A DNA stretch of 64,000 nt from Patiria pectinifera (lineage: Eukaryota > Echinodermata > Asteroidea > Valvatida > Asterinidae): NCBI GenBank assembly GCA_029964075.1, contig CM057142.1:34226392-34290391 (forward strand), read 5' to 3'. Positions 8,265 to 47,162 of this stretch are shown piece by piece (position 1 is the first letter of the stretch; every line of letters starts with the position of its first letter). The position numbers were made by a program, and so were the translations under genes. The notes below the pieces were generated by a model, which searched no databases, was not told the origin of the DNA, and saw nothing but the letters and a program-made list of their open reading frames with translations.

Positions 8265-8485
8265 CTTCCAATTCAGTCGTTCCTCAACCGATCTAATTGC
8301 ACGAAGTCCACAGTATGATGTACTTTTCCAAATCGACGTCGGTGGATGAATGATTGCAGTGCCGACACGTGACTTTTGACGTCACCATCCCTTGCGACCG
8401 GCAGATTCATATATGAAATGCCCACGCGAAGAAGCCTATCCCCAGCTTCATCAAGGTTGGCAGCTTTAATCTCCCCGTCCGTCAT
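8265..8485 (-). CDS. Candidate short exon or small ORF, unassigned
   Basis: An ATG at 8,485 opens a 70-codon frame (MTDGEIKAANLDEAGDRLLR...) ending in TGA at 8,273-8,275. A strong splice donor, GAAG|GTAAGTTACC, lies at 8,265/8,264, eight bases past the stop; a second frame, open from about 8,379, runs into that donor as ...SVEERLNWK. The helical, charged composition looks protein-like, but I recognise no family. The middle of the ORF (MNLPVARDGDVKSHVSALQ) is encoded by sequence nearly identical to the conserved core of the array monomers, so it could be either a genuine exon that gave rise to the core or an exon interrupted by a solitary core. No copy exists in unit 2. Confidence 0.3.
8364..8415 (+). 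repeat. Solitary copy of the array monomer core (E-box + CRE)
   Basis: Contains CACGTG and TGACGTCA with the same spacing as in the arrays, followed by CACCATCCCTTGCGACCGG and a TCATATAT segment, aligning with the monomer's CACCACCCTTTGCAACCGG...TTTATATA with only a few differences. No tRNA-like head or T-run accompanies it. It lies about 2.2 kb before array 1. Confidence 0.75.
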
Positions 8486-10466: not shown

Positions 10467-10764
10467 CTTAGTTCTCTTTATAAAAAAGTTGTCTTTATAG
10501 GCGAGGAAACGCGCAAGGATGAGTCGACATTTTTTTAAGGAATAATCGTCGAAGAGCCAAATAAAATATATTATAAATAATAAATATATTATAAGTCGGT
10601 AGAGTGCCATTTTCAGATCATCATTCTGGGGTTGGTGGTTCAATCCTGAGGTTGTCAACAACGACATATTTTTTTTCCGTCAGAGCGGAGGGGGTGGGGG
10701 AGTGACGACGACACGTGACTTTTGACGTCACCACCCTTTGCAACCGGAGGTTTATATAGGCCTA

Positions 10765-11330
10765 TCTTTTGTTTGTAAACATTGGCGCCATTTTGTATGG
10801 GCTGCCGTAAGCGCATAAATTGAAGCCGTGGTTGGCAACATATTTTTCCAAAATAGTCCTCATAACGCCATCAACACATATATAAAAAGGAATGTGTAGG
10901 AATTATTTTGTAGCTTTGTTGAAAACTAGTGCAGGGCCCGTCAAAAAATGCACCTGTTCGGTAGGGGCAATTTCAAAATGCTCATATTATGCAAACAACG
11001 CACACGATTCAATTGTGTTGTTTTCACAGGTTAAACTCACACTCATAGGTTCAGCGCACTTTGTACATGTCGCCATACATCCCCGGCACTGATATTCACC
11101 CATACGACGGACAGACAGACAGACCGAACGACCGACAGACAGACAGCCCGACAGACAGACAGACAGACAGACAGACATTCCTGGAATTATTTTAAGGATG
11201 TTGTATTTTCAAGTATCAAATAAATTTTGGTGATCTGTAATAACTCTTCTTCGTTTTTGCAGTGTTGGACCTTCCATAGTTTTGCAGGCCGTGGTTGGCG
11301 AAAATTCAGTTTGCCAACCAAGCGCAGAAA
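10765..11330. repeat. Unrelated insertion in array B1 with CAGA microsatellite
   Basis: The first full monomer is interrupted after its TATA segment by about 565 bp of non-array sequence, and monomer sequence resumes near 11,331 (GATCATAAATTCCCG). TATATA occurs on both sides. Inside are a duplicated CCGTGGTTGGC motif (near 10,827 and 11,289) and an impure GACA/CAGA tetranucleotide tract at about 11,107-11,176. No transposon family recognised. Confidence 0.6.
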
Positions 11331-13024
11331 GCTATATAGATCATAAATTCCCGTTTCGGTAAGTGCGAGCCGGTAGCCAAGTCGGTAAAGTGCCGTTCTC
11401 AGATTATCAATCTAGGGGTTGGTGGTTCGAGCCCGAGGTTGTCAACAACGACATTTTTTTTTTCGTCAGAGCGTAGGGGATGGAGGACTGACGACGCCAC
11501 GTGACTTTTGACGTCACCACCCTTTGGAACCGGAGGTTTATATATAATAAAAATTCCCGGCTTGGTAAGTGCGAGCCGGTAGCCAAGTCGGTAGAGTGCC
11601 ATTTTCAGATTATCATTCTGGGGGTTGTTGGCTCGAGCCGGATGTTGTCAACAACGACATTTATTTATTTTTACGTTAGAGCGGAGAATGTTGGGGGGGG
11701 GGAGGGACTGACGACGACACGTGACTTTTGACGTCACCACCCTTTGCAGCCGGAGGTTTATATTTATTATCAATTCCCGGTTCGGAAAGTGCGAGCCGGT
11801 AGCCAAGCCGGTAGCCAAGTCGGTAGAGTGATATTTTCAGATCATCATTCTGGGGGTTGGTGGTTCGAGCCCGAGGTTGTCAACAACGACTATTTTTTTG
11901 TCAGAGCGGAGGGGATGGGGGAGTGACGACGACACGTGACATTTGACGTCACCACCCTTTGCAACCGGAGGTTTATATATATTATAAATTCCCGATTCGG
12001 CAAGTGCGAGCTGGTAGCCAAGTCGGTAAAGTGCCGTTCACAGATCATCAATCTAGGGGTTGGTGGCTCGACGAGCCCGAGGTTGTCACCAACGACATCT
12101 ATTTTTTTCCCGTCAGAGCGGAGGGGGTGGGAGACTGACGACGACACGTGACTTTTGACGTCACCACCCTTTGTAACCTTAGGTTCATTTATATTATAAA
12201 TTCAAAACATTTCAAGTGCGAGCCGGTAGCCTAGACGGAAGTGTGCCGTTCTCAGATCTTCAATCGCGGGGTTGGTGGTTCGAGCCCCAGGTTGTCATTT
12301 ACGACATTTATTTTTTTTCTGCGGAGGGGGCGGGCTGCGGAATTGATGACGACACGTGACTTTTGACGTCACCACCCTTTGCAACCTGAGGTTCATATAT
12401 TTTATAAATTCAAAACAGTTCAAGTGCGACCCGGTAGCCTAGACGGTAGAGTGCCGTTCTCAGATCTTCAATCGCGGGGTTGGTGGTTAGAGCCCCAGGT
12501 TATCATTTACGACATTTATTTTTTTTTCTGCAGAGCGGAGGGGGCGGGCTGCGGAATTGATGAGGACACGTGACTTTTGACGTCACCACCCTTTGCAACC
12601 TGAGGTTCATATATATTATATTTCAACACCTTTCAAGTGCGAGCCGGTAGCTCAGTCGGTAGACTGCCATTCTCAGATATTCAATCGCGGGATTGGTGGT
12701 TCGAGCCCCAGGTTGTCATCTGCGACAATTATTATTTTTTTCGACGCGTAAGCGGAGGGATTGATGAGGACAGGTGACTTTTGACGTCACCACCCTTTGC
12801 AACCTGAGGTTCATATATATTATATTTCAACACATTTCAAGTGCGATCCGGTAGCTCAGTCGGTAGAGTGCCATTCTCAGATATTCAATCGGAGGGTTGG
12901 TGGTTCGGGATCCAGGTTGTCAGCTGCGACAATTATTATTTTTTTCGACACGTGCGCGGAGGGAGCGGGGTGAGGGATTGATGACGACACGTGACTTTTG
13001 ACGTCACCACCCTTTGCAACCTGA

Positions 13025-13195
13025 GGTTCATATATATTATATTTCAACACATTTCAAGAGCCCCAGGTTGTCATTTGCGATATTTATTTTTTTTTTCGAC
13101 ACGGGAGCGGAGGGATTGATGAGGACAGGTGACTTTTGACGTCACCACCCTTTGCAACCTGAGGTTCATATATATTATATTTCAACACATTTCAA
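13025..13195 (+). repeat. Headless array monomer
   Basis: Monomer sequence passes from ...CATTTCAAG directly to AGCCCCAGGTTG, deleting the A box, the anticodon-like region and most of the B box while keeping the E-box/CRE core, TATA and T-run. One copy is present here; four are present in array B2. Confidence 0.8.
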
Positions 13196-16100
13196 GTGCG
13201 ATCCGGTAGCTCAGTCGGTAGAGTGCCATTCTCAGATATTCAATCGGAGGGTTGGTGGTTCGGGCTCCCCGTTGTCATCTGCGACAATTATTATTTTTTT
13301 CGACACGGGAGCGGGGTGAGGGATTGATGACGACACGTGACTTTTGACGTCACCACCCTTTGCAACCTGAGGTTCATATATATTATATTTCAATACGTTT
13401 CAAGTGCGAGACGGTTGCTCAGTCGGTAGAGTGCCATTCTCAGATATTCAATCGCGGGGTTGGTGGTTCGAGCCCCAGGTTGCCATTTGCGATATTTATT
13501 ATTTTTCGATTTTTTTTTTCGACAGAACGGAGGAGGCGGGCTGCGGAATTGATGACGACACGTGACTTTTGACGTCACCACCCTTTGCAACCTGAGGTTC
13601 ATATATTTTATAAATTCAAAACATTTCAAGTGCGACCCGGTAGCCTAGTCGGTAGAGTACCGTTCTCAGATCTTCACTTGCGGGGTTTGGTTCGAGCCCA
13701 AGGTTGTCATCTACGACGTTTATTTTGTTTCCTCAGAGCGGAGTGGGCGGTGTGAGGGATTGGTGTCGACACGTGACTTTTGACGTCACCACCCTTTGCA
13801 ACTGGACGTTCATATATATTATAAATTCCAAACATTTCAAATGCGAGCCGGTAGCCTAGTCGGTAGAGTGCCGTTCTCAGATCTTTAATCGTGGGGTTGG
13901 TGATTCGAGCCCCAGGTTGTCATTTGCGATATTTATTATTTTTCGATTTTTTTTTTCGACAGAACGGAGGGGGCGGGCTGCGGAATTGATGACGACACGT
14001 GACTTTTGACGTCACCACCCTTTGCAACCTGAGGTTCATATATATTATATTTCAATACGTTTCAAGTGCGAGACGGTTGCTCAGTCGGTAGAGTGCCATT
14101 CTCAGATATTCAATCGCGGGGTTGGTGGTTCGAGCCCCAGGTTGTCATTTGCGATATTTATTATTTTTCGATTTTTTTTTTCGACAGAACGGAGGGGGCG
14201 GGCTGCGGAATTGATGACGACACGTGACTTTTGACGTCACCACCCTTTGCAACCTGAGGTTCATATATTTTATAAATTCAAAACATTTCAAGTGCGACCC
14301 GGTAGCCTAGTCGGTAGAGTACCGTTTTCAGATCTTCACTTGCGGGGTTTGGTTCGAGCCCAAGGTTGTCATCTACGACGTTTATTTTGTTTCCTCAGAG
14401 CGGAGTGGGCGGTGTGAGGGATTGATGTCGACACGTGACTTTTGACGTCACCACCCTTTGCAACCTGTGGTACATATATATTATACATTCCAAACTTTCC
14501 AAGTGCGAGCCGGTAGCCTAGTCGGTAGAGAGTCGTTCTCAGTTCTTCAATCGCGGGGTTGGTGGTTCGAGCCCCAGGTTGTCATCTTCGATATTTGTTT
14601 TGTTTCGTGAGGGGAAGTGGGTGTTGTGAAGGATTGGTGTCGACACCTGACTTTTGACGTCACCACCCTTTGCAACCGGACGTTCATATATATTATAAAT
14701 TCCAAACATTTCAAATGCGAGCCGGTAGCCTAGTCGGTAGAGTGCCGTTCTCAGATCTTCAACCATGGGGTTGGTGATTCGAGCTCAAGGTTGTCATCCA
14801 CGATATTTTAATTTTTTTTCGTCAGAGCGGAGTGGGCGGTGTGAGGGATAGATGTCAACACGTGACCTTTGACGTCACCACACTTTGCAACCTGAGTTAG
14901 CCTAGTTTGTAGAGTGCCGTTTTCATATCTTCAATCGCGGGGTTGGTGGTTCGTGACAACCCAGGTTGTCATCTACGATATTTGTTTTTTTCGTCAGAGT
15001 GGAGGGGACTGTGTGAGAGATTGATGAAGACACGTGACTTTTGACGTCACCAACCGTTGCGACCTGATGTTAAAATATATTATAAATTACAAACATTTCA
15101 AGTGCGAGCCGGTAGCCTAGTCGGTAGAGTGCCGTTCTCAGATATTCAATCGCGGGGATGGTGGTTCGAGCCCCAGGTTGTCATCTGCGACATTTACCGT
15201 TTTTTCGACAGAGCGGAGGGGCCGGGTGAGGGATTGATGACGACACGTGACTTTTGACGTCACCACTCTTTGCAACCTGTGGTTCATATTTATTATATTT
15301 CAACACATTTCAAATGCGAGCCGGTTGCGCAGTCGGTAGAGCCCCGTTCTCAGATATTCAAACGCGGGGTTGGTGGTTCGAGGCCCAGGTTGTCATTTGC
15401 GACATTTTTTCTTTTTTCGACAGAGCGGAGGGGGCGGGGTGATGGATTGATGACGACACGTGACTTTTGCCGTCACCACCCTTTGCAACCTGAGGTTCAT
15501 ATATAAATGATATTTCAACACATTTCAAGCCGGTAGCTCAGTCGGAAGTGTGCCGTTCACAATTCTTCAATTGCGCGATTGGTGGTTCGAGCCCCAGGTT
15601 GTCATCTGCGACATTTTTTTTTCGACAGAGCGGAGGGGGCGGGGTGAGGTTCATATATATTAAAAAATCAAAACTTTTCAGGTGCGAGCCGGTAGCCTAG
15701 TCGGTAGAGTGTCCTTCTCAGATCTTCAATCGCGGGGTTGGTGGTTCGAGCCCGAGGTCGTCATCTGCTATATTTATTCATCTACTATATTCATTTATTT
15801 TTTTCGTCAGAGTAGAGGGGGCGGTGTGAGGGATTGATGTCGACACGTGACTTTTGACGACACCAACCTTTGCAACCTGAGGCTCATATGTATTATGAAT
15901 TCAAAACATTTCAAGTGCGAGCCGGTAGCTCAGTCGGTAGAGTGCCATTCTCAGATCTTCAATCGCCAGGTTGGTGGTTCGAGCCCAAGGTTGTCATTTG
16001 CGACATTTTTTTTTCCGACAGAACGGAGGGGGCGGGGTGAGGGATTGATGACGAAACCGGTAGCTCAGTCGGAAGTGTGCCGTTCACAATTCTTCAATCG

Positions 16101-18040
16101 CGCGGTTGGTGGTTCGAGCCCCAGGTTGTCATCTGCGACATTTTTTTTTCCACAGAGCGGAGGGGGCGGGTCGAGGGATTGATGACGACACGTTACTTTT
16201 GACGTCACCACCCTTTGCAACCTGAGGTTCATATTCATTATATTTCAACACATTTCAAGTGCGAGCCGGTTGCTCAGTCGGTAGAGTGGCATTCTCAGAT
16301 CTCCAATTGCGACATTTTTTTTTTTCGACAGAGTGGAGTTGGCGGGGTGAGGGATTGATGACGACACGTAACTTTTGATGTCACCACCCTTTGCAACCTG
16401 AGGTTCATATATATTATATTTCCACACATTTCAAGTGCGAGCCGGTTGCTCAGGCGGTAGAGTGCCGTTTTCAGATATTCAATCGCGGGGTTGGTGGTTC
16501 GAGCCCCACTTTGTCATCTGCGACATTTATTATTTTTTTGACACGGGGGCGGGTCGAGGGATTGATGACGACACGTGACTTTTGACGTCACCACCCTTTG
16601 CAACCTGAGGTTCATATATATTATATTTCAAGAAATTTCAAGTGCGAGCCGGTAGCTCAGTCGGCAGAGTGCCATTCTCAGATCATCAATTGCGGGGTTG
16701 GTGGTTCGAGCCCCACGTTGTCATTTGCGACATTTTTTTCCTACAGAACGGAGGGGGCGGAGTGAGGGATTGATGACGACACGTGACTTTTGCAACCCCC
16801 CTTTGCAACCTGAGGTTCATATTTATTATATTTCAACACATTTCAAGTGCGAGCCGGTTGCTCAGTCCGTTTAGTGCCATTCTCAGATCTTCAATCGCGG
16901 GGTTGGTGGTTCGAGCCCCAGGTTGTCATTTGCGATATTTTTTTTCGACAGAACGGAGGGGGCGGAGTGAGGGATTGATGACGACACGTGACTTTTGCAA
17001 CCCCCCTTTGCAACCTGAGGTTCATATTTATTATATTTCAACACATTTCAAGTGCGAGCCGGTTGCTCAGTCCGTAGAGTGCCATTCTCAGATCTTCAAT
17101 CGCGGGGTTGGTGGTTCGAGCCCCAAATTGTCATCTGCGACATTTATTATTTTTTTGACACGTGAGCGGAGGGAGCGGGGTGACGGATTGATGACGACAC
17201 GTGACTTTTGACGTCACCACCCTTTGCAACCTGAGGTTCATATATATTATATTTCAAGAATTTTCAAGTGCGAGCCGGTAGCTCAGTCGGCAGAGTGCCG
17301 TTCTCAGATCATCAATCGCGGGGTTGGTGGTTCGAGCCCCACGTTGTCATTTGCGACATTTTTTTTTCGACAGAACGGAGGGGGCGGAGTGAGGGATTTA
17401 TGACGACACGTGACTTTTGCAACCCCCCTTTGCAACCTGAGGTTCATATTTATTATATTTCAACTCATTTCAAGTGCGAGCCGGTTGCTCTGTCCGTAGA
17501 GTGCCGTTCTCAGATCATCAATTGCGGGGTTGGTGGTTCGAGCCCCACGTTGTCATTTGCGACATTTTTTTTCGACAGAACGGAGGGGGAGGAGTGAGGG
17601 ATTGATGACGACACGTGACTTTTGCAACCCCCCTTTGCAACCTGAGGTTCATATTTATTATGTTGCTCAGTCCGTAGAGTGCCATTCTCAGATCTTCAAT
17701 CGCGGGGTTGGTGGTTCGAGCCCCAGGTTGTCATGTGCGACATTGCATGTACTTTTTTTTCTACAGATCGGAGGGGGCCTGAGGTTCATATATATTATAC
17801 TTCAACTCATTTCAAGTGCGAGCCGGTAGCTCAGTCGGTAGAGTGCCATTCTCTGATCTTCAATCGTGGGTTTGGTGGTTCGAGCCCCAGGTTGTCATTT
17901 GCGACATTAATTTTTTTTCGACAGAGCGGAAGGCGCGGGGTGAGGGATTGATGACGAAACGTGACTTTGACGTCACCACCCTTTGCAACCCAAGGTTGTC
18001 ATTTCCGACATTTTTTTTCGACAGAGCGGAGGGAGCGGGG

Positions 18041-18406
18041 GCGTAATTTGTTTTCCTTGGAGGGTTAGGGGCAATGTCATGAATAATTCAGTTTTTCCTT
18101 TGAATCATTGCAAGACTTAGGTTCTCGTTCTATTTTCCCCTTAATTTAAAATTAAAAAAATAGCTGATGAAAATGAGCAGCGACGACGTCGTGGATTCGA
18201 ACCAGGGATCTTTGTATCCATAGCTCATCTCTCTATCCACTAGGCTACTGTGTGGTAGCTCGACGACAGCCGTTCTTTAAAATGCTTTAATGTATTGTAA
18301 CTAGTTGAGTAACTAACAACATTGCTGTTGATGTCATTGTCCGTTCTCATGGATAAACATTATGCATGACATTGCCCCTAAACCCTCCTAGGAATAAAAA
18401 TTACGC
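18041..18406. mobile_element. 366-bp MITE inserted in array B1
   Basis: Ends are inverted repeats of about 45 bp: GCGTAATTTGTTTTCCTTGG at the left against the complement of ...CCTAGGAATAAAAATTACGC at the right, both continuing into AGGGTTAGGGGCAATGTCATG. The flanking monomer sequence is GC-rich, so the target duplication is ambiguous (GAGCGGGG against GGGCGGGG is possible). It carries a minus-strand tRNA-like segment. Three 366-bp copies recur in array B2, so it was spread by array amplification, not by separate insertions. Confidence 0.85.
18183..18262 (-). tRNA. tRNA-like segment inside the 366-bp MITE
   Basis: On the minus strand the A-box-like TAGCCTAGTGG (18,237-18,247) and the perfect B box GGTTCGAATCC (18,193-18,203) are correctly ordered and spaced. 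No paired acceptor stem is visible and the anticodon arm does not fold canonically, so it is a tRNA-derived remnant or SINE head. The same segment occurs within the MITE copies at 43,394, 46,797 and 50,200. Confidence 0.5.
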
Positions 18407-19064
18407 GGGCGGGGTTAGAGATTGTTGACGACACGTGACTTTTGACGTCACCACCCTTTGCAACCTGAGGTTCATATATGTTATATTTCAACTCATTTCA
18501 AGTGCGAGCCTGTTGCTCAGTCGGTAGAGTGCCATTCTCAGATATTCAATGGCGGGTTGGTGGTTCGAGCCACAGGTTGTCATTTGCGCCTTTTTTTTTC
18601 GACAGAGCGGAAGGGGCGGGGTGAGGGATTGATGACGACACGTGACTTTTGACGTCACCACCCTTTGCAACCTGAGGTTCATATTTATTATATTTCAACA
18701 CATTTCAAGTGCCAGCCGGTAGCTCAGTCGGTAGAGTGCCGTTCTCAAATCTTAAATCGCGGGATTGTTGGTTCGAGCCTCAGGTTGTCATCTGCGACAT
18801 TTATTCTCTTCGAAAGAGCGGAGGGGGAGGGGTGAGGGATTGATTACGACACGTGACTTTTGACGTAACCACCCTTTGCAGCCTGAGGTTCATATGTATT
18901 ATATTTCAATACGTTTCAAGTGCGAGCCTGTAGCTCAGTCGGTAGAGTGCCATTCTCAGATATTCAATCGCAGGGTTGGTGGTTCGAGCCCCAGGTTCTC
19001 ATCTGCGACATTTATTATTTTTTTTCGACAGAACGGAGGGGGCGGGGTGAGGGATTGATGACGA

Positions 19065-19083
19065 CACGTGACTTTTGACGTCA
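19065..19083 (+). promoter_or_regulatory. Representative monomer E-box + CRE pair
   Basis: CACGTG at 19,065-19,070 and the palindromic CRE TGACGTCA at 19,076-19,083. CACGTG is the class of site bound by USF/MYC/MITF-type bHLH proteins and TGACGTCA that of CREB/ATF bZIP proteins. The same pair with the same 5-bp gap occurs in most monomers of both arrays. Confidence 0.7.
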
Positions 19084-19106
19084 CCACCCTTTGCAACCTG
19101 AGGTTC

Positions 19107-19119
19107 ATATATATTATAT
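19107..19119 (+). promoter_or_regulatory. Representative monomer TATA-like element
   Basis: ATATATATTATAT-like stretch 39 bp before the A box, a position consistent with the upstream TATA element of some Pol III genes. It is kept, with small variations, in nearly all monomers. Confidence 0.45.
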
Positions 19120-19134
19120 TTCAATACATTTCAA

Positions 19135-19239
19135 GTGCGAGCCTGTAGCTCAGTCGGTAGAGTGCCATTCTCAGATAATCAATCGCGGGATTGGTGGTTC
19201 GAGCCCCAGGTTGTCATCTGCGACATCTATTATTTTTTT
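19135..19239 (+). ncRNA. Representative putative Pol III transcript of an array monomer
   Basis: A box TAGCTCAGTCGG at 19,146-19,157, B box GGTTCGAGCCC at 19,196-19,206, hairpin TGTC (19,212-19,215) with GACA (19,222-19,225), and a 7-T terminator-like run at 19,233-19,239. The head resembles tRNA-Lys best, through the CGG-TAGCTCAGTCGGTAGAG 5' part and the TTCGAGCCCCACGTTG-type 3' part seen in sister monomers, but it has about 6 extra bases between the D and T arms and no acceptor stem. Expected RNA is about 90-105 nt. Transcription is not shown. Confidence 0.45.
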
Positions 19240-19737
19240 AGACACGGGAACGGGGTTAGGGATTGATTACGACACGTGACTTTTGACGTCACCACCCTTT
19301 GCAACCTGAGGTTCATATGTATTATATTACAATACGTTTCAAAGGCGATCCTGTAGCTCAGTCGGTAGAGTGCCATTCTCAGATATTCAATCGCGGGGTT
19401 GGTGGTTCGAGCCCTAGGTTGTCATCTGCGACATTTACTTTTTTTTCGACAGAGCGGAGGGGGCGGGGTGAGGGATTGATGACGACACGTGACTTTTGAC
19501 GTCACCACCCTTTGCAACCTGAGGGTCATATGTATTATATTTCAGTACGTTTCAAGTGCGAGCCTGTAGCTCAGTCGGTAGAGTGCCATTCTCAGATAAT
19601 CAATCGCGGGGTTGGTGGTTCGAGCCCCAGGTTGTCATTTGCGACATTTTTTTTTCCGACAGAGCGGAGGGGGCGGGGTAAGGGATTGATGACACGTGAC
19701 TTTTTACGTCACCACCCTTTGCAACCTGTGGTTCATA

Positions 19738-19753
19738 TTTATTAAATTTTATT
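19738..19753 (-). promoter_or_regulatory. Two AATAAA polyadenylation signals within the array edge
   Basis: TTTATT at 19,738-19,743 and 19,748-19,753 read AATAAA on the minus strand, about 35-50 nt past the stop codon of the unassigned ORF at 19,788-20,735. They are part of the last array monomer. The same arrangement exists in unit 2 near 54,878-54,893. Confidence 0.5.
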
Positions 19754-19787
19754 ATATTTCAACACATTTCAAGTGCGAGCCGGTACC

Positions 19788-20735
19788 TCAGTCATCTGCG
19801 ACATTAATTATATTTTTTGACAAGTCATCGTCAGTGTGGAAACTGGTGTCCTCCAACCCATATTCTTCCTCGACATTTGCCGCATTGACGTGATGAGCGC
19901 CAAGACCTTGATAACCACACTTGTCCTCTTTAACTTCGGTGCCATAAGGGTAGAGTTTTCTACGTTTGAAATGCTTCGTACTTCGGCAGGCTATTTCACT
20001 TTCGTTTGTATTCTCTGCCCGTGTACATATTTTCTGTCCATCAGCTTTAAGAAGGCGGTGGATGGAGTCTTCCAAACAACTCGGCTCGTGTTGCAGTCTA
20101 CTTAGAAGTTCTGAGATGCAAGTTTTTCCATCCTTGGTCCTCCTGACGATGGGTGAGCCGGGCGTTGTTTTCCTGGCGAGAGATCGGTGCCGGCCGTTCT
20201 TCGGCCGCTGCATTGCTAGGGCCTCAAGAACGTCCAGCAGTTGTTTGCTCACGACTTTCTCACCGAGTTGGTCAGCGCTATTCACCGCGTGTCCATAATC
20301 CAAGGTCTGGGTAGCAGCATCCCTCACTGATACTGCATCGAAGAAGCTGGGGTGATGGTTCAATGTGTTTCTCTGGCATGAGCACCTCGTCATGTTTGTC
20401 TGTGTGCCTCTAGTTTGGCGCAATTTCCGGGTTGCAGCGCAGACCTCGATGACACTCTCATCCGTATCGCTCTCCGAGGTGGTCGCCCAGCAGTCTGTCC
20501 CGATGCCGTCCGCGGTCCGGCCGGCGTACCAGCCCCACGCCGTGACGTCGCCGTCCGAGCGCCTCCTGAGCAGTCCGCGGCTGTTGAGATGCTTGCGGCA
20601 CCGCTCGTCAAACTTTTCCACCGAGCACCTGAGCGAGTCGACCCGGGACAGGAGCGCGGTTCGGTGCTTGGACAGTAATGCGTCAAAGGAACAGCCACCA
20701 TGTTCCTTTGACAAGAGTGATTCCGATATATCCAT
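19788..20735 (-). CDS. Unassigned 315-residue protein, copy 1
   Basis: From the ATG at 20,735 (MDISESLLSKEHGG...) the frame is open for 315 codons. The N-terminal 55 residues look helical (LSKHRTALLSRVDSLRCSVE), followed by LRRRSDGDV, an acidic SESDTDES stretch, two TQT motifs, a Lys/Arg-rich middle (RPKNGRHRSLARKTTPGSP) and a KRRK basic cluster near residue 260, suggesting a soluble, possibly nuclear protein. I recognise no domain. The last 11-12 codons (…SKNIINVADD, stop) come from the edge of the tRNA-like array, which also supplies two AATAAA signals, so the original C-terminus may have been replaced or this may be one exon of a longer gene. The copy in unit 2 is at least 95% similar but has a nonsense codon at W83. 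Confidence 0.6.
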   Translation of the reverse strand: MDISESLLSKEHGGCSFDALLSKHRTALLSRVDSLRCSVEKFDERCRKHLNSRGLLRRRSDGDVTAWGWYAGRTADGIGTDCWATTSESDTDESVIEVCAATRKLRQTRGTQTNMTRCSCQRNTLNHHPSFFDAVSVRDAATQTLDYGHAVNSADQLGEKVVSKQLLDVLEALAMQRPKNGRHRSLARKTTPGSPIVRRTKDGKTCISELLSRLQHEPSCLEDSIHRLLKADGQKICTRAENTNESEIACRSTKHFKRRKLYPYGTEVKEDKCGYQGLGAHHVNAANVEEEYGLEDTSFHTDDDLSKNIINVADD

Positions 20736-33576: not shown

Positions 33577-36500
33577 CCACCACCCTTTGCAACCGGACGT
33601 TCATATATATTATAAATTCCAAACATTTCAAATGCGAGCCGGTAGCCTAGTCGGTAGAGTGCCGTTCTCAGATCTTCAATCGTGGGGTTGGTGATTCGAG
33701 CCCAAGGTTGTCATCCACGATATTTTAATTTTTTTTCGTCAGAGCGGAGTGGGCGGTGTGAGGGATAGATGTCAACACGTGACCTTTGACGTCACCACAC
33801 TTTGCAACTTGAGTTAGCCTAGTCTGTAGAGTGCCGTTTTCATATCTTCAATCGCGGGGTTGGTGGTTCGTGACAACCCAGGTTGTCATCTACGATATTT
33901 GTTTTTTTCGTCAGAGTGGAGGGGACTGTGTGAGAGATTGATGAAGACACGTGACTTTTGACGTCACCAACCGTTGCGACCTGATGTTAAAATATATTAT
34001 AAATTACAAACATTTCAAGTGCGAGCCGGTAGCCTAGTCGGTAGAGTGCCGTTCTCAGATATTCAATCGCGGGGATGGTGGTTCGAGCCCCAGGATGTCA
34101 TCTGCGACATTTACCTTTTTTTCGACAGAGCGGAGGGGGCGGGGTGAGGGATTGATGACGACACGTGACTTTTGACGTCACCACTCTTTGCAACCTGTGG
34201 TTCATATTTATTATATTTCAACACATTTCAAATGCGAGCCGGTTGCGCAGTCGGTAGAGCCCCGTTCTCAGATATTCAACCGCGGGGTTGGTGGTTCGAG
34301 GCCCAGGTTGTCATTTGCGACATTTTTTATTTTTTGGACAGAGCGGAGGGGGCGGGGTGAGAGATTGATGACGACACGTGACTTTTGACGTCACCACCCT
34401 TTGCAACCTGAGGTTCATATATAAATGATATTTCAACACATTTCAAGCCGGTAGCTCAGTCGGAAGTGTGCCGTTCACAATTCTTCAATTGCGCGATTGG
34501 TGGTTCGAGCCCCAGGTTGTCATCTGCGACATTTTTTTTTTTCGACAGAGCGGAGGGGGCATATATATTAAAAAATCAAAACTTTTCAGGTGCGAGCCGG
34601 TAGCCTAGTCGGTAGAGTGTCCTTCTCAGATCTTCAATCGCGGGGTTGGTGGTTCGAGCCCGAGGTCGTCATCTACTATATTTATTCATCTACTATATTC
34701 ATTTATTTTTTTCGTCAGAGAAGAGGGGGCGGTGTGAGGGATTAATGTCGACACGTGACTTTTGACGTCACCAACCTTTGCAACCTGAGGCTCATATGTA
34801 TTATGAATTCAAAACATTTCAAGTGCAAGCCGGTAGCTCAGTCGGTAGAGTGCCATTCTCAGATCTTCAATCGCCAGGTTGGTGGTTCGAGCCCAAGGTT
34901 GTCATTTGCGACATTTTTTTTTGTCGACAGAACGGAGGGGGCGGGGTGAGGGATTGATGACGAAACCGGTAGCTCAGTCGGAAGTGTGCCGTTCACAATT
35001 CTTCAATCGCGCGGTTGGTGGTTCGAGCCCCAGGTTGTCATCTGCGACATTTTTTTTTCGACAGAGCGGAGGGGGCGGATCGAGGGATTGATGACGACAC
35101 GTGACTTTTGACGTCACCACCCTTTGCAACCTGAGGTTCAGATTCATTATATTTCAACACATTTCAAGTGCGAGCCGGTAGCTGAGTCGGTAGAGTGGCA
35201 TTCTCAGATCTCCAATTGCGACATTTTCTTTTTCGACAGAGTGGAGTTGGCGGGGTGAAAGATTGATGACGACACGTGACTTTTGACGTCACCACCCTTT
35301 GCAACCTGAGGTTCATATATATTATATTTCCACACATTGCAAGTGCGAGCCGGTTGCTCAGTCGGTAGAGTGCCGTTTTCAGATATTCAATCGCGGGGTT
35401 GGTGGTTCGAGCCCCACTTTGTCATCTGCGACATTTATTATTTTTTTGACACGTGAGCGGAGGGGGCGGGTCGAGGGATTGATGACGACACGTGACTTTT
35501 GACGTCACCACCCTTTGGAACCGGAGGTTTATATATAATAAAAATTCCCGGCTTGGTAAGTGCGAGCCGGTAGCCAAGTCGGTAGAGTGCCATTTTCAGA
35601 TTATCATTCTGGGGGTTGGTGGCTCGAGCCGGATGTTGTCAACAACGACATTTATTTATTTTTACGTTAGAGCGGAGAATGTTGGGGGGGGGGGAGGGAC
35701 TGACGACGACACGTGACTTTTGACGTCACCACCCTTTGCAGCCGGAGGTTTATATTTATTATCAATTCCCGGTTCGGAAAGTGCGAGCCGGTAGCCAAGC
35801 CGGTAGCCAAGTCGGTAGAGTGATATTTTCAGATCATCATTCTGGGGGTTGGTGGTTCGAGCCCGAGGTTGTCAACAACGACTATTTTTTTGTCAGAGCG
35901 GAGGGGATGGGGGAGTGACGACGACACGTGACATTTGACGTCAACACCCTTTGCAACCGGAGGTTTATATATATTATAAATTCCCGATTCGGCAAGTGCG
36001 AGCTGGTAGCCAAGTCGGTAAAGTGCCGTTCACAGATCATCAATCTAGGGGTTGGTGGCTCGACTAGCCCGAGGTTGTCACCAACGACATCTATTTTTTT
36101 TTCCCGTCAGAGCGGAGGGGGTGGGAGACTGACGACGACACGTGACTTTTGACGTCACCACCCTTTGTAACCTTAGGTTCATTTATATTATAAATTCAAA
36201 ACATTTCAAGTGCGAGCCGGTAGCCTAGACGGAAGTGTGCCGTTCTCAGATCTTCAATCGCGGGGTTGGTGGTTCGAGCCCCAGGTTGTCATTTACGACA
36301 TTTATTTTTTTTCTGCGGAGGGGGCGGGCTGCGGAATTGATGACGACACGTGACTTTTGACGTCACCACCCTTTGCAACCTGAGGTTCATATATTTTATA
36401 AATTCAAAACAGTTCAAGTGCGACCCGGTAGCCTAGACGGTAGAGTGCCGTTCTCAGATCTTCAATCGCGGGGTTGGTGGTTAGAGCCCCAGGTTATCAT

Positions 36501-37024
36501 TTACGACATTTATTTTTTTTTCTGCAGAGCGGAGGGGGCGGGCTGCGGAATTGATGAGGACACGTGACTTTTGACGTCACCACCCTTTGCAACCTGAGGT
36601 TCATATATATTATATTTCAACACCTTTCAAGTGCGAGCCGGTAGCTCAGTCGGTAGAGTGCCATTCTCAGATATTCAATCGCGGGATTGGTGGTTCGAGC
36701 CCCAGGTTGTCATCTGCGACAATTATTATTTTTTTCGACGCGTAAGCGGAGGGATTGATGAGGACAGGTGACTTTTGACGTCACCACCCTTTGCAACCTG
36801 AGGTTCATATATATTATATTTCAACACATTTCAAGTGCGATCCGGTACTTCAGTCGGTAGAGTGCCATTCTCAGATATTCCATCGGAGGGTTGGTGGTTC
36901 GGGCTCCAGGTTGTCAGCTGCGACAATTATTATTTTTTTCGACACGTGCGCGGAGGGAGCGGGGTGAGGGATTGATGACGACACGTGACTTTTGACGTCA
37001 CCACCCTTTGCAACCTGAGGTTCA

Positions 37025-37800
37025 TATATATTATATTTCAACACATTTCAAGAGCCCCAGGTTGTCATTTGCGATATTTATTATTTTTTTCGACACGGGA
37101 GCGGAGGGATTGATGAGGACAGGTGACTTTTGACGTCACCACCCTTTGCAACCTGAGGTTCATATATATTATATTTCAACACATTTCAAGTGCGATCCGG
37201 TAGCTCAGTCGGTAGAGTGCCATTCTCAGATATTCCATCGGAGGGTTGGTGGTTCGGGCTCCAGGTTGTCAGCTGCGACAATTATTATTTTTTTCGACAC
37301 GTGCGCGGAGGGAGCGGGGTGAGGGATTGATGACGACACGTGACTTTTGACGTCACCACCCTTTGCAACCTGAGGTTCATATATATTATATTTCAACACA
37401 TTTCAAGAGCCCTAGGTTGTCATTTGCGATATTTATTATTTTTTTCGACACGGGAGCGGAGGGATTGATGAGGACAGGTGACTTTTGACGTCACCACCCT
37501 TTGCAACCTGAGGTTCATATATATTATATTTCAACACATTTCAAGAGCCCCAGGTTGTCATTTGCGATATTTATTATTTTTTTCGACACGGGAGCGGAGG
37601 GATTGATGAGGACAGGTGACTTTTGACGTCACCACCCTTTGCAACCTGAGGTTCATATATATTATATTTCAACACATTTCAAGAGCCCCAGGTTGTCATT
37701 TGCGATATTTATTATTTTTTTCGACACGGGAGCGGAGGGATTGATGAGGACAGGTGACTTTTGACGTCACCACCCTTTGCAACCTGAGGTTCATATATAT
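37025..37800 (+). repeat. Cluster of headless monomers
   Basis: Four ~137-bp monomers (near 37,050, 37,406, 37,544 and 37,682) go from CATTTCAAG directly to AGCCC(C/T)AGG, so they lack A box, anticodon region and most of the B box. Three are consecutive. Their E-box is altered to CAGGTG. Array B1 has a single one near 13,057. Confidence 0.85.
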
Positions 37801-40356
37801 TATATTTCAACACATTCCAAGTGCGATCCGGTAGCTCAGTCGGTAGAGTGCCAGTCTCAGATATTCAATCGGAGGGTTGGTGGTTCGAGCCCCAGGTTGT
37901 CATTTGCGATATTTATTATTTTTCGATTTTTTTTTTCGACAGAACGGAGGAGGCGGGCTGCGGAATTGCTGACGACACGTGACTTTTGACGTCACCACCC
38001 TTTGCAACCTGAGGTTCATATATTTTATAAATTCAAAACATTTCAAGTGCGACCCGGTAGCCTAGTCGGTAGAGTACCGTTCTCAGATCTTCACTTGCGG
38101 GGTTTGGTTCGAGCCCAAGGTTGTCATCTACGACGTTTATTTTGTTTCCTCAGAGCGGAGTGGGCGGTGTGAGGGATTGATGTCGACACGTGACTTTTGA
38201 CGTCACCACCCTTTGCAACCTGTGGTACATATATATTATACATTCCAAACTTTCCATGTGCGAGCCGGTAGCCTAGTCGGTAGAGAGTCGTTCTCAGTTC
38301 TTCAATCGCGGGGTTGGTGGTTCGAGCCCCAGGTTGTCATCTTCGATATTTTTTTTGTTTCGTCAGGGGAAGTGGGCGTTGTGAAGGATTGGTGTCGACA
38401 CGTGACTTTTGACGTCACCACCCTTTGCAACCGGACGTTCATAAATATTATAAATTCCAAACATTTCAAATGCGAGCCGGTAGCCTAGTCGGTAGAGTGC
38501 CGTTCTCAGATCTTTAATCGTGGGGTTGGTGATTCGAGCCCCAGGTTGTCATTTGCGATATTTATTATTTTTCGATTTTTTTTTCGACAGAACGGAGGGG
38601 GCGGGCTGCGGAATTGATGACGACACGTGACTTTTGACGTCACCACCCTTTGCAACCTGAGGTTCATATATATTATATTTCAATACGTTTCAAGTGCGAG
38701 ACGGTTGCTCAGTCGGTAGAGTGCCATTCTCAGATATTCAATCGCGGGGTTGGTGGATCGAGCCCCAGGTTGTCATTTGCGATATTTATTATTTTTCGAT
38801 TTTTTTTTTCGACCGAACGGAGGGGGCGGGCTGCGGAATTGATGACGACACGTGACTTTTGACGTCACCACCCTTTGCAACCTGAGGTTCATATATTTTA
38901 TAAATTCAAAACATTTCAAGTGCGACCCGGTAGCCTAGTCGGTAGAGTACCGTTTTCAGATCTTCACTTGCGGGGTTTGGTTCGAGCCCAAGGTTGTCAT
39001 CTACGACGTTTATTTTGTTTCCTCAGAGCGGAGTGGGCGGTGTGAGGGATTGATGTCGACACGTGACTTTTGACGTCACCACCCTTTGCAACCTGTGGTA
39101 CATATATATTACACATTCCAAACTTTCCAAGTGCGAGCCGGTAGCATAGTCGGTAGAGAGTCGTTCTCAGTTCTTCAATCGCGGGGTTGGTGGTTCGAGC
39201 CCCAGGTTGTCATCTTCAATATTTTTTTTGTTTCGTCAGGGGAAGTGGGCGTTGTGAAGGATTGGTGTTGACACGTGACTTTTGACGTCACCACCCTTTG
39301 CAACCGGACGTTTATATATATTATAAATTCCAAACATTTCAAATGCGAGCCGGTAGCCTAGTCGGTAGAGTGCCGTTCTCAGATCTTCAATCGTGGGGTT
39401 GGTGATTCGAGCCCAAGGTTGTCATCCACGATATTTTAATTTTTTTTCGTCAGAGCGGAGTGGGCGGTTCATATTTATTATATTTCAACACATTTCAAAT
39501 GCGAGCCGGTTGCGCTACCCCCGTTCTCAGATATTCAACCGCGGGGTTGGTGGTTCGAGGCCCAGGTTGTCATTTGCGACATTTTTTCTTTTTTCGACAG
39601 AGCGGAGGGGGCGGGGTGAGGGATTGATGACGACACGTGACTTTTGACGTCACCACCCTTTGCAACCTGAGGTTCATATATAAATGATATTTCAACACAT
39701 TTCAAGCCGGTAGCTCAGTCGGAAGTGTGCCGTTCACAATTCTTCAATTGCGCGATTGGTGGTTCGAGCCCCAGGTTGTCATCTGCGACATTTTTTTTTT
39801 TCGACAGAGCGGAGGGGGCGGGGTGAGGTTCATATATATTAAAAAATCAAAACTTTTCAGGTGCGAGCCGGTAGCCTAGTCGGTAGAGTGTCCTTCTCAG
39901 ATCTTCAATCGCGGGGTTGGTGGTTCGAGCCCGAGGTCGTCATCTACTATATTTATTCATCTACTATATTCATTTATTTTTTTCGTCAGAGAAGAGGGGG
40001 CGGTGTGAGGGATTAATGTCGACACGTGACTTTTGACGTCACCAACCTTTGCAACCTGAAGCTCATATGTATTATGAATTCAAAACATTTCAAGTGCGAG
40101 CCGGTAGCTCAGTCGGTAGAGTGCCATTCTCAGATCTTCAATCGCCAGGTTGGTGGTTCGAGCCCAAGGTTGTCATTTGCGACATTTTTTTTTTTCGACA
40201 GAACGGAGGGGGCGGGGTGAGGGATTGATGACGAAACCGGTAGCTCAGTCGGAAGTGTGCCGTTCACAATTCTTCAATCGCGCGGTTGGTGGTTCGAGCC
40301 CCAGGTTGTCATCTGCGACATTTTTTTTTTCGACAGAGCGGAGGGGGCGGGTCGAG

Positions 40357-43300
40357 GGATTGATGACGACACGTGACTTTTGACGTCACCACCCTTTGCA
40401 ACCTGAGGTTCATATATGTTATATTTCAACTCATTTCAAGTGCGAGCCTGTTGCTCAGTCGGTAGAGTGCCATTCTCAGATATTCAATCGCGGGTTTGGT
40501 GGTTCGAGCCACAGGTTGTCATTTGCGCCTTTTTTTTTCGACAGAGCGGAAGGGGCGGGGTGAGGGATTGATGACGACACGTGACTTTTGACGTCACCAC
40601 CCTTTGCAACCTGAGGTTCATATTTATTATATTTCAACACATTTCAAGTGCCAGCCGGTAGCTCAGTCGGTAGAGTGCCGTTCTCAAATCTTAAATCGCG
40701 GGATTGTTGGTTCGAGCCTCAGGTTGTCATCTGCGACATTTATTCTTTACGAAAGAGCGGAGGGGGAGGGGTAAGGGATTGATTACGACACGTGACTTTT
40801 GACGTCACCACCCTTTGCAGCCTGAGGTTCATATGTATTATATTTCAATACGTTTCAAGTGCGAGCCTGTAGCTCAGTCGGTAGAGTGCCATTCTCAGAT
40901 ATTCAATCGCGGGGTTGGTGGTTCGAGCCCCGGGTTCTCATCTGCGACATTTATTATTTTTTTTCGACAGAACGGAGGGGGCGGGGTGAGGGATTGATGA
41001 CGACACGTGACTTTTGACGTCACCACCCTTTGCAACCTGAGGTTCATATATATTATATTTCAATACATTTCAAGTGCGAGCCTGTAGCTCAGTCGGTAGA
41101 GTGCCATTCTCAGATCTTCAATCGCGGGGTTGGTGGTTCGAGGCCCAGGATGTCATTTGCGACATTTTTTTTTTCGACAGAACGGAGGGGGCGGGGTGAG
41201 GGATTGATGACGAAACCGGTAGCTCAGTCGGAAGTGTGCCGTTCACAATTCTTCAATCGCGCGGTTGGTGGTTCGAGCCCCAGGTTGTCATCTGCGACAT
41301 TTTTTTTTTCGACAGAGCGGAGGGGGCGGGTCGAGGGATTGATGACGACACGTGACTTTTGACGTCACCCCCCTTTGCAACCTGAGGTTCATATTCATTA
41401 TATTTCAACACATTTCAAGTGCGAGCCGGTAGCTGAGTCGGTAGAGTGGCATTCTCAGATCTCCAATTGCGACATTTTCTTTTTCGACAGAGTGGAGTTG
41501 GCGGGGTGAAAGATTGATAACGACACGTGACTTTTGACGTCACCACCCTTTGCAACCTGAGGTTCATATTCATTATATTTCAACACATTTCAAGTGCGAG
41601 CCGGTTGCTCAGTCGGTAGAGTGGCATTCTCAGATCTCCAATTGCGACATTTTTTTTTTTCGACAGAGTGGAGTTGGCGGGGTGAGGGATTGATGACGAC
41701 ACGTGACTTTTGATGTCACCACCCTTTGCAACCTGAGGTTCATATATATTATATTTCCACACATTGCAAGTGCGAGCCGGTTGCTCAGTCGGTAGAGTGC
41801 CGTTTTCAGATATTCAATCGCGGGGTTGGTGGTTCGAGCCCCACTTTGTCATCTGCGACATTTATTATTTTTTTGACACGTGAGCGGAGGGGGCGGGTCG
41901 AGGGATTGATGACGACACGTGACTTTTGACGTCACCACCCTTTGCAACCTGAGGTTCATATATATTATATTTCAAGAAATTTCAAGTGCGAGCCGGTAGC
42001 TCAGTCGGCAGAGTGCCATTCTCAGATCATCAATTGCGGGGTTGGTGGTTCGAGCCCCACGTTGTCATTTGCGACAACTTTTTTTTCCGACAGAGCGTAG
42101 GGGGCGGGATGAGGGATTGATGACGACGACACGTGACTTTTGACGTCACCATCCTTTGCAACCTGAGGTTCATATTTATTATATTTCAACACATTTCAAG
42201 TGCGAGCCGGTTGCTCAGTCCGTAGAGTGCCATTCTCAGATCTTCAATCGCGGGGTTGGTGGTTCGAGCCCCAGGTTGTCATTTGCGATATTTTTTTTCG
42301 ACAGAACGGAGGGGGCGGAGTGAGGGATTGATGACGACACGTGACTTTTGCAACCCCCCTTTGCAACCTGAGGTTCATATTTATTATATTTCAACACATT
42401 TCAAGTGCGAGCCGGTTGCTCAGTCCGTAGAGTGCCATTCTCAGATCTTCAATCGCGGGGTTGGTGGTTCGAGCCCCAAATTGTCATTTACGACATTTTT
42501 TATTGTTTTGACACGTGAGCGGAGGGAGCGGGGTGACGGATTGATGACGACACGTGACTTTTGACGTCACCACCCTTTGCAACCTGAGGTTCATATATAT
42601 TATATTTCAAGAATTTTCAAGTGCGAGCCGGTAGCTCAGTCGGCAGAGTGCCGTTCTCAGATCATCAATCGCGGGGTTGGTGGTTCGAGCCCCACGTTGT
42701 CATTTGCCACATTTTTTTTTCGACAGAACGGAGGGGGCGGAGTGAGGGATTTATGACGACACGTGACTTTTGCAAGCCCCCTTTGCAACCTGAGGTTCAT
42801 ATTTATTATATTTCAACACATTTCAAGTGCGAGCCGGTTGCTCTGTCCGTAGAGTGCCGTTCTCAGATCATCAATTGCGGGGTTGGTGGTTCGAGCCCCA
42901 CGTTGTCATTTGCGACATTTTTTTTCGACAGAACGGAGGGGGAGGAGTGAGGGATTGATGACGACACGTGACTTTTGCAACCCCCCTTTGCAACCTGAGG
43001 TTCATATTTATTATGTTGCTCAGTCCGTAGAGTGCCATTCTCAGATCTTCAATCGCGGGGTTGGTGGTTCGAGCCCCAGGTTGTCATGTGCGACATTACA
43101 TGTACTTTTTTTTCTACAGATCGGAGGGGGCCTGAGGTTCATATATATTATACTTCAACTCATTTCAAGTGCGAGCCGGTAGCTCAGTCGGTAGAGTGCC
43201 ATTCTCTGATCTTCAATCGTGGGTTTGGTGGTTCGAGCCCCAGGTTGTCATTTGCGACATTAATTTTTTTTCGACAGAGCGGAAGGCGCGGGGTGAGGGA

Positions 43301-43759
43301 TTGATGACGAAACGTGACTTTGACGTCACCACCCTTTGCAACCCAAGGTTGTCATTTCCGACATTTTTTTTCGACAGAGCGGAGGGGGCGGGGGCGTAAT
43401 TTGTTTTCCTTGGAGGGTTAGGGGCAATGTCATGAATAATTCAGTTTTTCCTTTGAATCATTGCAAGACTTAGGTTCTCGTTCTATTTTCCCCTTAATTT
43501 AAAATTAAAAAAATAGCTGATGAAAATGAGCAGCGACGACGTCGTGGATTCGAACCAGGGATCTTTGTATCCATAGCTCATCTCTCTATCCACTAGGCTA
43601 CTGTGTGGTAGCTCGACGACAGCCGTTCTTTAAAATGCTTTAATGTATTGTAACTAGTTGAGTAACTAACAATATTGCTGTTGATGTCATTGTCCGTTCT
43701 CATGGATAAACATTATGCATGACATTGCCCCTAAACCCTCCTAGGAATAAAAATTACGC
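40357..43759 (+). repeat. Higher-order repeat copy a (~3.4 kb)
   Basis: Phased on the end of the 366-bp MITE. It joins sequence like B1 18,407-19,150 to sequence like B1 15,960-18,406, the signature of a tandem duplication of that B1-type interval. It contains the MITE copy at 43,394-43,759 with its minus-strand tRNA-like segment. Confidence 0.85.
43394..43759. mobile_element. 366-bp MITE copy in higher-order repeat a
   Basis: Same ends and interior as 18,041-18,406, with only a few base differences (for example CAATATTG for CAACATTG). Confidence 0.85.
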
Positions 43760-46700: not shown

Positions 46701-47162
46701 GGGATTGATGACGAAACGTGACTTTGACGTCACCACCCTTTGCAACCCAAGGTTGTCATTTCCGACATTTTTTTTCGACAGAGCGGAGGGGGCGGGGCGT
46801 AATTTGTTTTCCTTGGAGGGTTAGGGGCAATGTCATGAATAATTCAGTTTTTCCTTTGAATCATTGCAAGACTTAGGTTCTCGTTCTATTTTCCCCTTAA
46901 TTTAAAATTAAAAAAATAGCTGATGAAAATGAGCAGCGACGACGTCGTGGATTCGAACCAGGGATCTTTGTATCCATAGCTCATCTCTCTATCCACTAGG
47001 CTACTGTGTGGTAGCTCGACGACAGCCGTTCTTTAAAATGCTTTAATGTATTGTAACTAGTTGAGTAACTAACAATATTGCTGTTGATGTCATTGTCCGT
47101 TCTCATGGATAAACATTATGAAGGAAATTGCAACTCAACCCTCCTAGGAATAAAAATTACGC
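43760..47162 (+). repeat. Higher-order repeat copy b (3,403 bp)
   Basis: MITE-to-MITE spacing is exactly 3,403 bp. Monomer order and individual variants match copies a and c. It includes a locally diverged stretch near 46,380-46,550 and a degraded right MITE end. Confidence 0.9.
46797..47162. mobile_element. 366-bp MITE copy in higher-order repeat b
   Basis: Same length and ends, but the right inverted repeat is altered (ATGAAGGAAATTGCAACTCAA where the others have ATGCATGACATTGCCCCTAAA). Confidence 0.85.

What the first reader, a model, noticed from the sequence alone, without database searches (positions are those of the whole stretch)
10593..19823. Tandem array in which each monomer is built like a complete RNA polymerase III gene
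Seen: ~215-bp monomers, one orientation, each normally with TATA-like stretch, A box, B box about 50 bp later, and a T-run about 25 bp after the B box. Known: A/B boxes plus T-run define type 2 Pol III genes; vault RNA and EBER genes add upstream CRE and TATA elements, as here. Inference: the array may be a large bank of ~90-105 nt ncRNA genes, or a satellite born from a tRNA-Lys-like SINE that kept its promoter parts.
Basis: partly seen in the sequence, partly recalled or inferred. Interest (0 to 1): 0.92.

Follow-up and report, generated by a model that had tools for sequence, protein, structure and literature searches.

The report
Sea-star satellite built from Pol III genes
A bat star's chromosomes carry long rows of a repeated 211-letter DNA unit, and most units look like a small-RNA gene made from an old lysine tRNA gene plus an on-switch and a stop signal, so the rows may be a bank of small-RNA genes; that any RNA is made has not been shown here.

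Summary
The window lies on a contig whose length equals the largest published Patiria pectinifera pseudochromosome. Positions 10593-19793 hold 43 whole or partial copies of a ~211-bp unit, all on the + strand; a second array (33578-54933) holds 106. Further arrays lie on other contigs; a 25-base promoter word occurs 1,648 times genome-wide with <=1 mismatch, 0 in the control. A typical unit joins E-box, CRE, TATA at -31, a degenerate tRNA-Lys(CUU)-like body with A and B boxes, and a T-run. The most diverged subfamily tested (C13, 80% identical) differs at 2 of 43 promoter-element sites against 37 of 145 others (one-sided p=0.0013). E-box/CRE is the best conserved part, the B box next; the A box and TATA are weakly supported on their own. 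No consensus RNA fold was found, vault RNA genes form a separate cluster, and no A-tailed SINE-like copy was found. I read it as a tRNA-Lys-derived Pol III-type satellite. The nearest relatives are amphibian Pol III-type tandem repeats; an E-box/CRE/TATA promoter built into the unit is the unusual part. Transcription is not shown.

The parts
10593..19793 (+). array 1 of the ~211-bp Pol III-type satellite (43 profile hits, 33 near-full); interrupted at ~10759-11294 and ~18044-18403
   Evidence: nhmmer with a profile built from the window's own units; counts
33578..54933 (+). array 2 of the same satellite (106 hits, 75 near-full), with a repeated ~3.4-kb higher-order block
19034..19240 (+). exemplar complete unit (best-scoring profile hit of the window)
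19065..19070 (+). E-box CACGTG of the exemplar unit (-74 if +1 is tRNA nucleotide 1)
   Evidence: consensus position
19076..19083 (+). CRE TGACGTCA of the exemplar unit (-63 to -56), inside the most conserved stretch
19108..19118 (+). TATA element TATATATTATA, starting at -31
19139..19236 (+). putative transcript of roughly 90-100 nt: tRNA-like body from tRNA nucleotide 1 into the T-run (both ends inferred, not measured)
   Evidence: sub-threshold Rfam tRNA match 19139-19214, 19.3 bits against a gathering score of 29
19146..19156 (+). A box TAGCTCAGTCG
19196..19206 (+). B box GGTTCGAGCCC
19233..19239 (+). T-run (terminator-like)
   Evidence: read; over all units a run of 4 or more T was found behind the B box (or behind unit position 160 where the strict B box is missing) in 532 of 540
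8344..8414 (+). solo copy of the promoter part only (E-box to TATA) without A or B box behind it
   Evidence: nhmmer model positions 12-79, E 1.7e-11; a second copy at C14:34300090 (L039)

Best explanation
A satellite DNA of the bat star Patiria pectinifera that descends from a tRNA-Lys(CUU) gene or pseudogene joined to an upstream promoter. A typical ~211-bp monomer is laid out as a type 2 RNA polymerase III gene with gene-external elements: E-box at -74, CRE at -63, TATA at -31, A box at +8, B box at +58, T-run at about +88 (all counted from tRNA nucleotide 1, assumed to be +1). The likely mechanism is that TFIIIC binds the A/B boxes, a CREB/ATF-type and a bHLH-type factor bind upstream, TFIIIB settles on the TATA, and Pol III makes a ~90-95-nt RNA with no conserved fold. 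The family seems to have spread by tandem duplication and transfer of array pieces, not by retroposition. Shown: layout, copy number, tRNA-Lys similarity, retention of promoter elements in the diverged subfamilies, no consensus fold in this alignment. Inferred: factor binding, transcription, RNA ends, mode of spread, any benefit to the animal.
For: Order and spacing of elements. tRNA-Lys similarity. Subfamilies C13 and C21 are 80% and 85% identical in consensus to array 1; at E-box, CRE, 15-base TATA region and constrained A/B positions C13 differs at 2 of 43 against 37 of 145 other sites (one-sided p=0.0013) and C21 at 2 of 43 against 27 of 145 (p=0.017; 5 units; 17 changes shared with C13, so not independent). 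With an 11-base TATA core: 1 of 39 against 38 of 149 (p=5e-4) and 28 of 149 (p=0.006). Among 86 representatives under 93% identical: E/CRE block 4.6% deviation, B box 5.3%, spacer 13.8%; A-box free positions 18.0%, constrained 6.3%; B box 9.3% and 4.2%. Parsimony changes per site: E/CRE block 3.6, A+B constrained 4.1, spacer 5.9 (p=1.6e-4 and 0.037). B-box integrity ranks 2 of 134 pseudo-box positions outside the E/CRE block, 15 of 179 overall. CpG observed/expected is 1.08-1.10 in the arrays, 0.78-0.85 in the three flanks. TATA-like box at -31/-24, CRE near -50 and sometimes Sp1 further up are described for 7SL, EBER and 4.5SH genes (PMC7279448, passages read).
Against: No RNA evidence of any kind. 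The A box alone is weak: integrity rank 22 of 130 outside the E/CRE block, 54 of 177 overall; its parsimony test gives p=0.21, TATA p=0.12, and A+B constrained sites against body spacer p=0.10; A+B alone between subfamilies p=0.17 and 0.09. The free-against-constrained contrast ranks 6 of 177 for the A box but only 40 of 179 for the B box. The E/CRE block was delimited after I saw it unchanged, and the element tests were set after the subfamily alignment was seen; the motif strings are standard ones (recalled). The other 11 groups compared with array 1 have 1-7 differences each and test nothing; one of them, C14c, has the E-box changed to CAGGTG in its consensus, and L017, from which it comes, has CACGTG in 13 of 40 units. 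Fewer than half of array-1 units have intact A+B+T (15 of 33). CRE sits at -63, about 12 bp further up than in mammalian genes. Gene conversion within arrays can mimic conservation. The 15 upstream stretches of other Pol III genes compared (8 vault, 4 7SL, 3 U6 or U6-like) do not share the module.
Confidence: 0.6

Rival explanations
1. An inert satellite born once from a tRNA-Lys-like sequence that lay next to a CRE/TATA promoter; today nothing is transcribed and the shared elements are leftovers kept alike by gene conversion.
For: No consensus RNA structure; A+B+T incomplete by strict motifs in 18 of 33 array-1 units; A box weakly conserved; the other Pol III genes compared lack this upstream module.
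Against: The two diverged subfamilies differ mostly outside the promoter elements, and A-box deviations concentrate at positions the consensus leaves free.
Confidence: 0.25
2. A binding-site array: the units work as DNA, collecting TFIIIC (strong B box) and CREB/bHLH factors, as an insulator-like or extra-TFIIIC-type element, and transcripts are incidental.
For: Conservation is strongest at E-box/CRE and B box, weaker at the A box and in the RNA body; no RNA fold.
Against: TATA-to-A-box distance is 37-39 in 379 of the 386 distances printed, and T-runs are kept in 532 of 540 near-full units, which pure binding would not need; indels are rare almost everywhere in the unit, and a T-run may be kept by slippage.
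Confidence: 0.12
3. A SINE family whose members happen to be tandem here, with ordinary retroposed copies elsewhere.
For: tRNA-Lys-type head.
Against: 0 places with the exact 20-base head end followed by an A-tract. 893 exact 21-base matches to the head end exist; every place in the capped listing lies in one ~100-kb stretch of C3, and the share followed by unit spacer (490 of 893) is near that inside known arrays (173 of 273; 125 of 223 without C3). Diverged or non-A-tailed copies were not excluded.
Confidence: 0.03

Closest known systems
Amphibian tRNA-like tandem repeats: PolIII/TAN of Cynops, OAX (satellite I) of Xenopus, Rana/polIII, Hy/polIII (PMC10702118, Background section read)
   Same: Tandem repeats (about 360, 250 and 200 nt for three of them; OAX longer) with a tRNA-like or supposed tRNA-like segment; PolIII/TAN is transcribed in vitro, and the title of the cited OAX paper calls it transcribed in Xenopus oocytes; that paper finds their link to SINEs unproven
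   Different: Here the tRNA is Lys(CUU) and the unit also carries E-box, CRE and TATA upstream; whether the amphibian units do was not stated in the text read; echinoderm, several chromosomes, diverged subfamilies
SINE-derived satellites of squamates, sSat (PMC10702118, passages)
   Same: Satellites that contain tRNA-type promoter parts
   Different: Those come from known dispersed SINEs and often hold only part of the head; here both boxes and an upstream promoter are kept and no dispersed SINE was found
7SL, EBER1/2, vault and 4.5SH RNA genes (type 2 Pol III genes with gene-external elements; PMC7279448, passages)
   Same: CRE upstream (7SL, EBER, vault, 4.5SH), TATA-like box about -31/-24, A and B boxes
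   Different: Those make known RNAs; here well over a thousand units, no consensus fold, CRE ~12 bp further up, an E-box, product unproven
4.5SI and 4.5SH RNA of rodents (PMC10137851, start of abstract in a listing)
   Same: Small RNA genes derived from tRNA and 7SL RNA with A/B boxes and TATA-like boxes at -31/-24
   Different: Recalled: 4.5SH genes lie in tandem with far longer units; 4.5SI genes are not a satellite

Membership tests
Type 2 RNA polymerase III gene with external elements | A box (TRGYNNARNNG) and B box (GWTCRANNC) spaced by 30-40 bp | tested here: met
   A 429, B 471 of 540 near-full units; start-to-start 51, i.e. 40 bp between them. Motif strings recalled; spacing from the start of the PMC7279448 abstract.
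Type 2 RNA polymerase III gene with external elements | T-run terminator behind the B box | tested here: met
   532 of 540
Type 2 RNA polymerase III gene with external elements | TATA-like box about -31/-24 and CRE near -50 | tested here: inconclusive
   TATA at -31, CRE at -63 if +1 is tRNA nucleotide 1; CRE position differs from the -51/-44 of PMC7279448
Type 2 RNA polymerase III gene with external elements | A transcript made by Pol III | not testable with these tools
   No RNA or ChIP data on hand
Satellite DNA | Long head-to-tail arrays at several chromosomal sites | tested here: met
   Arrays read on C3, C13, C14, C15, C21 (degraded), C132, C861, C906; C2 only by spacing of pattern matches
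SINE | Dispersed copies with a tail | tested here: not met
   0 A-tailed exact head ends; exact head ends lie in arrays as far as listed; diverged or otherwise tailed copies not excluded
SINE | LINE-derived 3' region and target-site duplications | not tested
   No solo head to examine
Vault RNA | Match to Rfam RF00006 | tested here: not met
   None in the window at gathering score nor at E<=10 in 16200-17400 and 19135-19245; the genome's vault genes lie at C15:15.571-15.595 Mb
Functional tRNA gene | Cloverleaf | tested here: not met
   ARAGORN 0 in the window (bacterial setting); Rfam tRNA 19.3 bits in one unit, below 29
Structured ncRNA family | Consensus structure with covariation | tested here: not met
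   RNAalifold of 146 distinct bodies (profile-aligned, insertions dropped): no pair; mean z -0.7 over 40 sampled units; one vault RNA of the same genome gives -2.7
U6-type (type 3) promoter | Shared upstream module with the genome's U6 genes | tested here: not met
   Two U6 genes over the cut-off and one U6-like match; a fourth, sub-threshold match (L023) has TGACGTCACCA about 160 bp upstream but no E-box-CRE-TATA module

The most novel reading that the evidence does not exclude
The arrays are a working gene bank: over a thousand CREB- and bHLH-responsive Pol III genes that flood some tissue or stage (oocyte or embryo would be first guesses) with a ~90-nt tRNA-Lys-derived RNA, so that a satellite doubles as an inducible small-RNA locus.
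Probability: 0.2. Interest if true: 0.85.

Novelty: new variant of a known kind. Interest (0 to 1): 0.55.

Why it matters
If the reading is right, satellite repeats here carry their own complete promoter, and diverged subfamilies on different chromosomes keep it while the rest drifts. That makes a plain test possible of whether a satellite can be selected as promoter or binding site, and it offers a marine embryo model in which a Pol III satellite, if active, could be measured with small-RNA libraries.

Tried and rejected
U6/snRNA-type promoter origin: U6 upstream regions share no module. 7SL and vault upstream regions: none either, apart from one 10-base match with a vault gene at E 0.11; one of eight vault genes has a CRE-like TGACGCAA at -50. 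Vault RNA identity: rejected. A viral (EBER-like) origin was not tested beyond Pfam on 5 of the 15 ORFs listed; the one match is a 7TM receptor. Rfam at E<=10 gave snoRNA-type and other matches far below gathering scores; taken as chance. Literature: the listings showed no title or abstract start that reports this repeat; I opened four papers only in part (PMC10702118, PMC4233971, PMC7279448, PMC10511450), and only open-licence papers are held. A random genome sample for solo copies was planned and could not be fetched. An earlier count said that the 37-bp block is identical in the consensus of all 14 groups; that is wrong, C14c differs at the E-box.
Full report
Where it is. The window lies on contig C14 of a 613.5-Mb genome in 1,020 contigs. 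C14 is 54,886,374 bases, exactly the largest pseudochromosome reported for Patiria pectinifera (PMC10511450, passages read); the published assembly counts 22 + 1,458 scaffolds and 615 Mb, so the held copy is not identical in its small pieces. A receptor ORF of the window is 98% identical over 79% of its length to a P. miniata protein. The assembly has 5.16% heterozygosity and a k-mer size of 426 Mb against 615 Mb assembled, so uncollapsed haplotypes can inflate copy counts, and the window's own doubled blocks (for instance 3687-5668 and 28106-30053, 95%) may be partly of that kind (inference).

What is in the sequence. A profile from the window's own units finds 150 hits, all on the + strand: 43 in 10593-19793, 106 in 33578-54933, and one outside at 8344-8414. 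Median period is 211 and 210 bp. A typical unit reads: purine/GC block, E-box CACGTG, CRE TGACGTCA, a CCACCCTTTGCAACC stretch, TATA, a variable leader, a tRNA-like body with A and B boxes, T-run. With +1 set at tRNA nucleotide 1 (an assumption), the E-box starts at -74, the CRE at -63, TATA at -31, A box at +8, B box at +58 and T-run at +88 in the consensus. Strict motifs are found in 429 (A), 471 (B), 462 (CRE), 439 (E-box), 535 (TATA, loose pattern) and 532 (T-run) of 540 near-full units from 13 loci; A+B+T together in 376 and all six in 296.

How far it spreads. The first search scored 40 matches on C3, C14, C15, C132 and C906. A 25-base promoter word has 1,648 matches at <=1 mismatch and none for the reversed control; fetched loci show further arrays on C13, C861 and, degraded, C21, and pattern spacing suggests one on C2. 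On C13 two arrays stand back to back in opposite orientation (L054).

What it came from. The body matches tRNA-Lys(CUU): local score 62 against a maximum of 26 in 300 shuffles and 14 for a tRNA-Ser; the C13 body scores 35 (only these two tRNAs were compared). A real tRNA-Lys-CTT gene of the genome (C11) aligns at 53 of 69 columns; its 150 bases upstream hold TATATA at -35 and no E-box or CRE. The body no longer passes as a tRNA: ARAGORN finds none in the window, and Rfam tRNA gives 19.3 bits in one unit, under its cut-off of 29. TATA boxes also stand before the eight vault genes read, so TATA may be ordinary for Pol III genes of this animal, while E-box plus CRE is the special part.

Is the promoter being kept? 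(1) 86 units under 93% identical: deviation 4.6% in the E/CRE block, 5.3% in the B box, 8.4% in the 15-base TATA region, 10.6% in the A box, 13.8% in the spacer; the A box has 18.0% at free and 6.3% at constrained positions, the B box 9.3% and 4.2%. Slid along the unit, that contrast ranks 6 of 177 for the A mask but only 40 of 179 for the B mask. Intact A box 57 of 86 and B box 68 of 86, against 41% and 39% expected at the spacer rate. (2) Parsimony counts on a tree: E/CRE 3.6 changes per site, A+B constrained 4.1, spacer 5.9 (p=1.6e-4 and 0.037); B alone p=0.037, A alone 0.21, TATA 0.12; A+B against body spacer only p=0.10. (3) Subfamily consensuses against array 1: with E-box, CRE, 15-base TATA region and constrained A/B positions, C13 differs at 2 of 43 and 37 of 145 other sites (one-sided p=0.0013), C21 at 2 of 43 and 27 of 145 (p=0.017, five units, 17 changes shared with C13); the other 11 groups have 1-7 differences and test nothing, and one of them (C14c) has lost the CACGTG in its consensus. 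With an 11-base TATA core the figures are 1 of 39 against 38 of 149 and 28 of 149 (p=5e-4 and 0.006), and A+B alone gives p=0.17 and 0.09. These element sets use standard motifs but were applied after the alignment had been seen. (4) A sliding integrity control puts the B box 2nd of 134 and the A box 22nd of 130 positions outside the E/CRE block (15th of 179 and 54th of 177 overall). Read together: E-box/CRE clearly kept, B box kept, TATA and A box weakly supported.

Is there an RNA? Unknown. The body has no consensus structure over 146 distinct sequences and a mean z of -0.7 (40 sampled), where one vault RNA of the same genome reaches -2.7. Retroposed copies would have been indirect proof of a transcript: none with an A-tail on the exact head end were found, and exact head ends lie in arrays as far as the capped listing and the spacer calibration show. 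Arrays show no CpG loss (1.08-1.10 against 0.78-0.85 in flanks), which speaks against germline methylation but does not prove activity.

Comparison. [quoted passage not shown] By layout the unit therefore works like such a gene. By ancestry and arrangement it belongs with tRNA-like tandem repeats of amphibians (PMC10702118, Background section). The genome's true vault genes form a separate cluster; in 15 upstream stretches of vault, 7SL and U6 or U6-like genes the E-box/CRE module was not found, though one vault gene has a CRE-like TGACGCAA at -50.

The solo promoter. At 8344-8414, about 2.2 kb before array 1, a copy of only the promoter part stands alone, its stretch from E-box through CRE unchanged. 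It may be a remnant, or the kind of promoter that the tRNA-like piece was joined to. Its duplicate at C14:34300090 shares the same surroundings (98.5% over 2,743 aligned bases).

Verdict. A tRNA-Lys-derived Pol III-type satellite, a new variant of a known kind. Layout is shown and retention of the promoter is supported; transcription and function are inferred.

Noticed in passing
window ~18044-18403; end motifs also at 43412-43741, 46815 and 50218-50547: A ~360-bp element with imperfect terminal inverted repeats (31 nt, 84%) sits inside the array and carries on the - strand another A box (TAGCCTAGTGG) and B box (GTTCGAATC): a MITE-like element with Pol III boxes of its own.
   Followed up: partly
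G000 C15:15570808-15595093 (L025-L032): A cluster of vault RNA genes: 18 Rfam matches, 15 over the cut-off, plus one over the cut-off at C15:185531. The eight upstream regions read carry TATA boxes. ARAGORN calls tRNAs in 8 of 55 sequences at positions that fit the inside of these vault genes (sequence names were not printed, so the link is inferred).
   Followed up: partly
L056, L057, L058: Three 7SL RNA genes lie directly behind a tRNA-like sequence (tRNA-Ser by eye).
   Followed up: no
window 4501-5616 (-) and 28889-30001 (-): Two copies of a rhodopsin-family receptor ORF in blocks 95% alike at DNA level (Pfam run on the first only); tandem duplicates or uncollapsed haplotypes.
   Followed up: no
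window 19788-20744 (-) and 54928-55626 (-): An ORF without a Pfam match abuts the end of both arrays.
   Followed up: no
window 58111-59856 and 59867-61612: A 1.75-kb tandem duplication, 99.7% identical.
   Followed up: no
window 37321-37821: Inside array 2 a 138-bp truncated unit is itself tandemly repeated 3.6 times; most of these pieces match only unit positions up to 105, i.e. promoter without A or B box.
   Followed up: no
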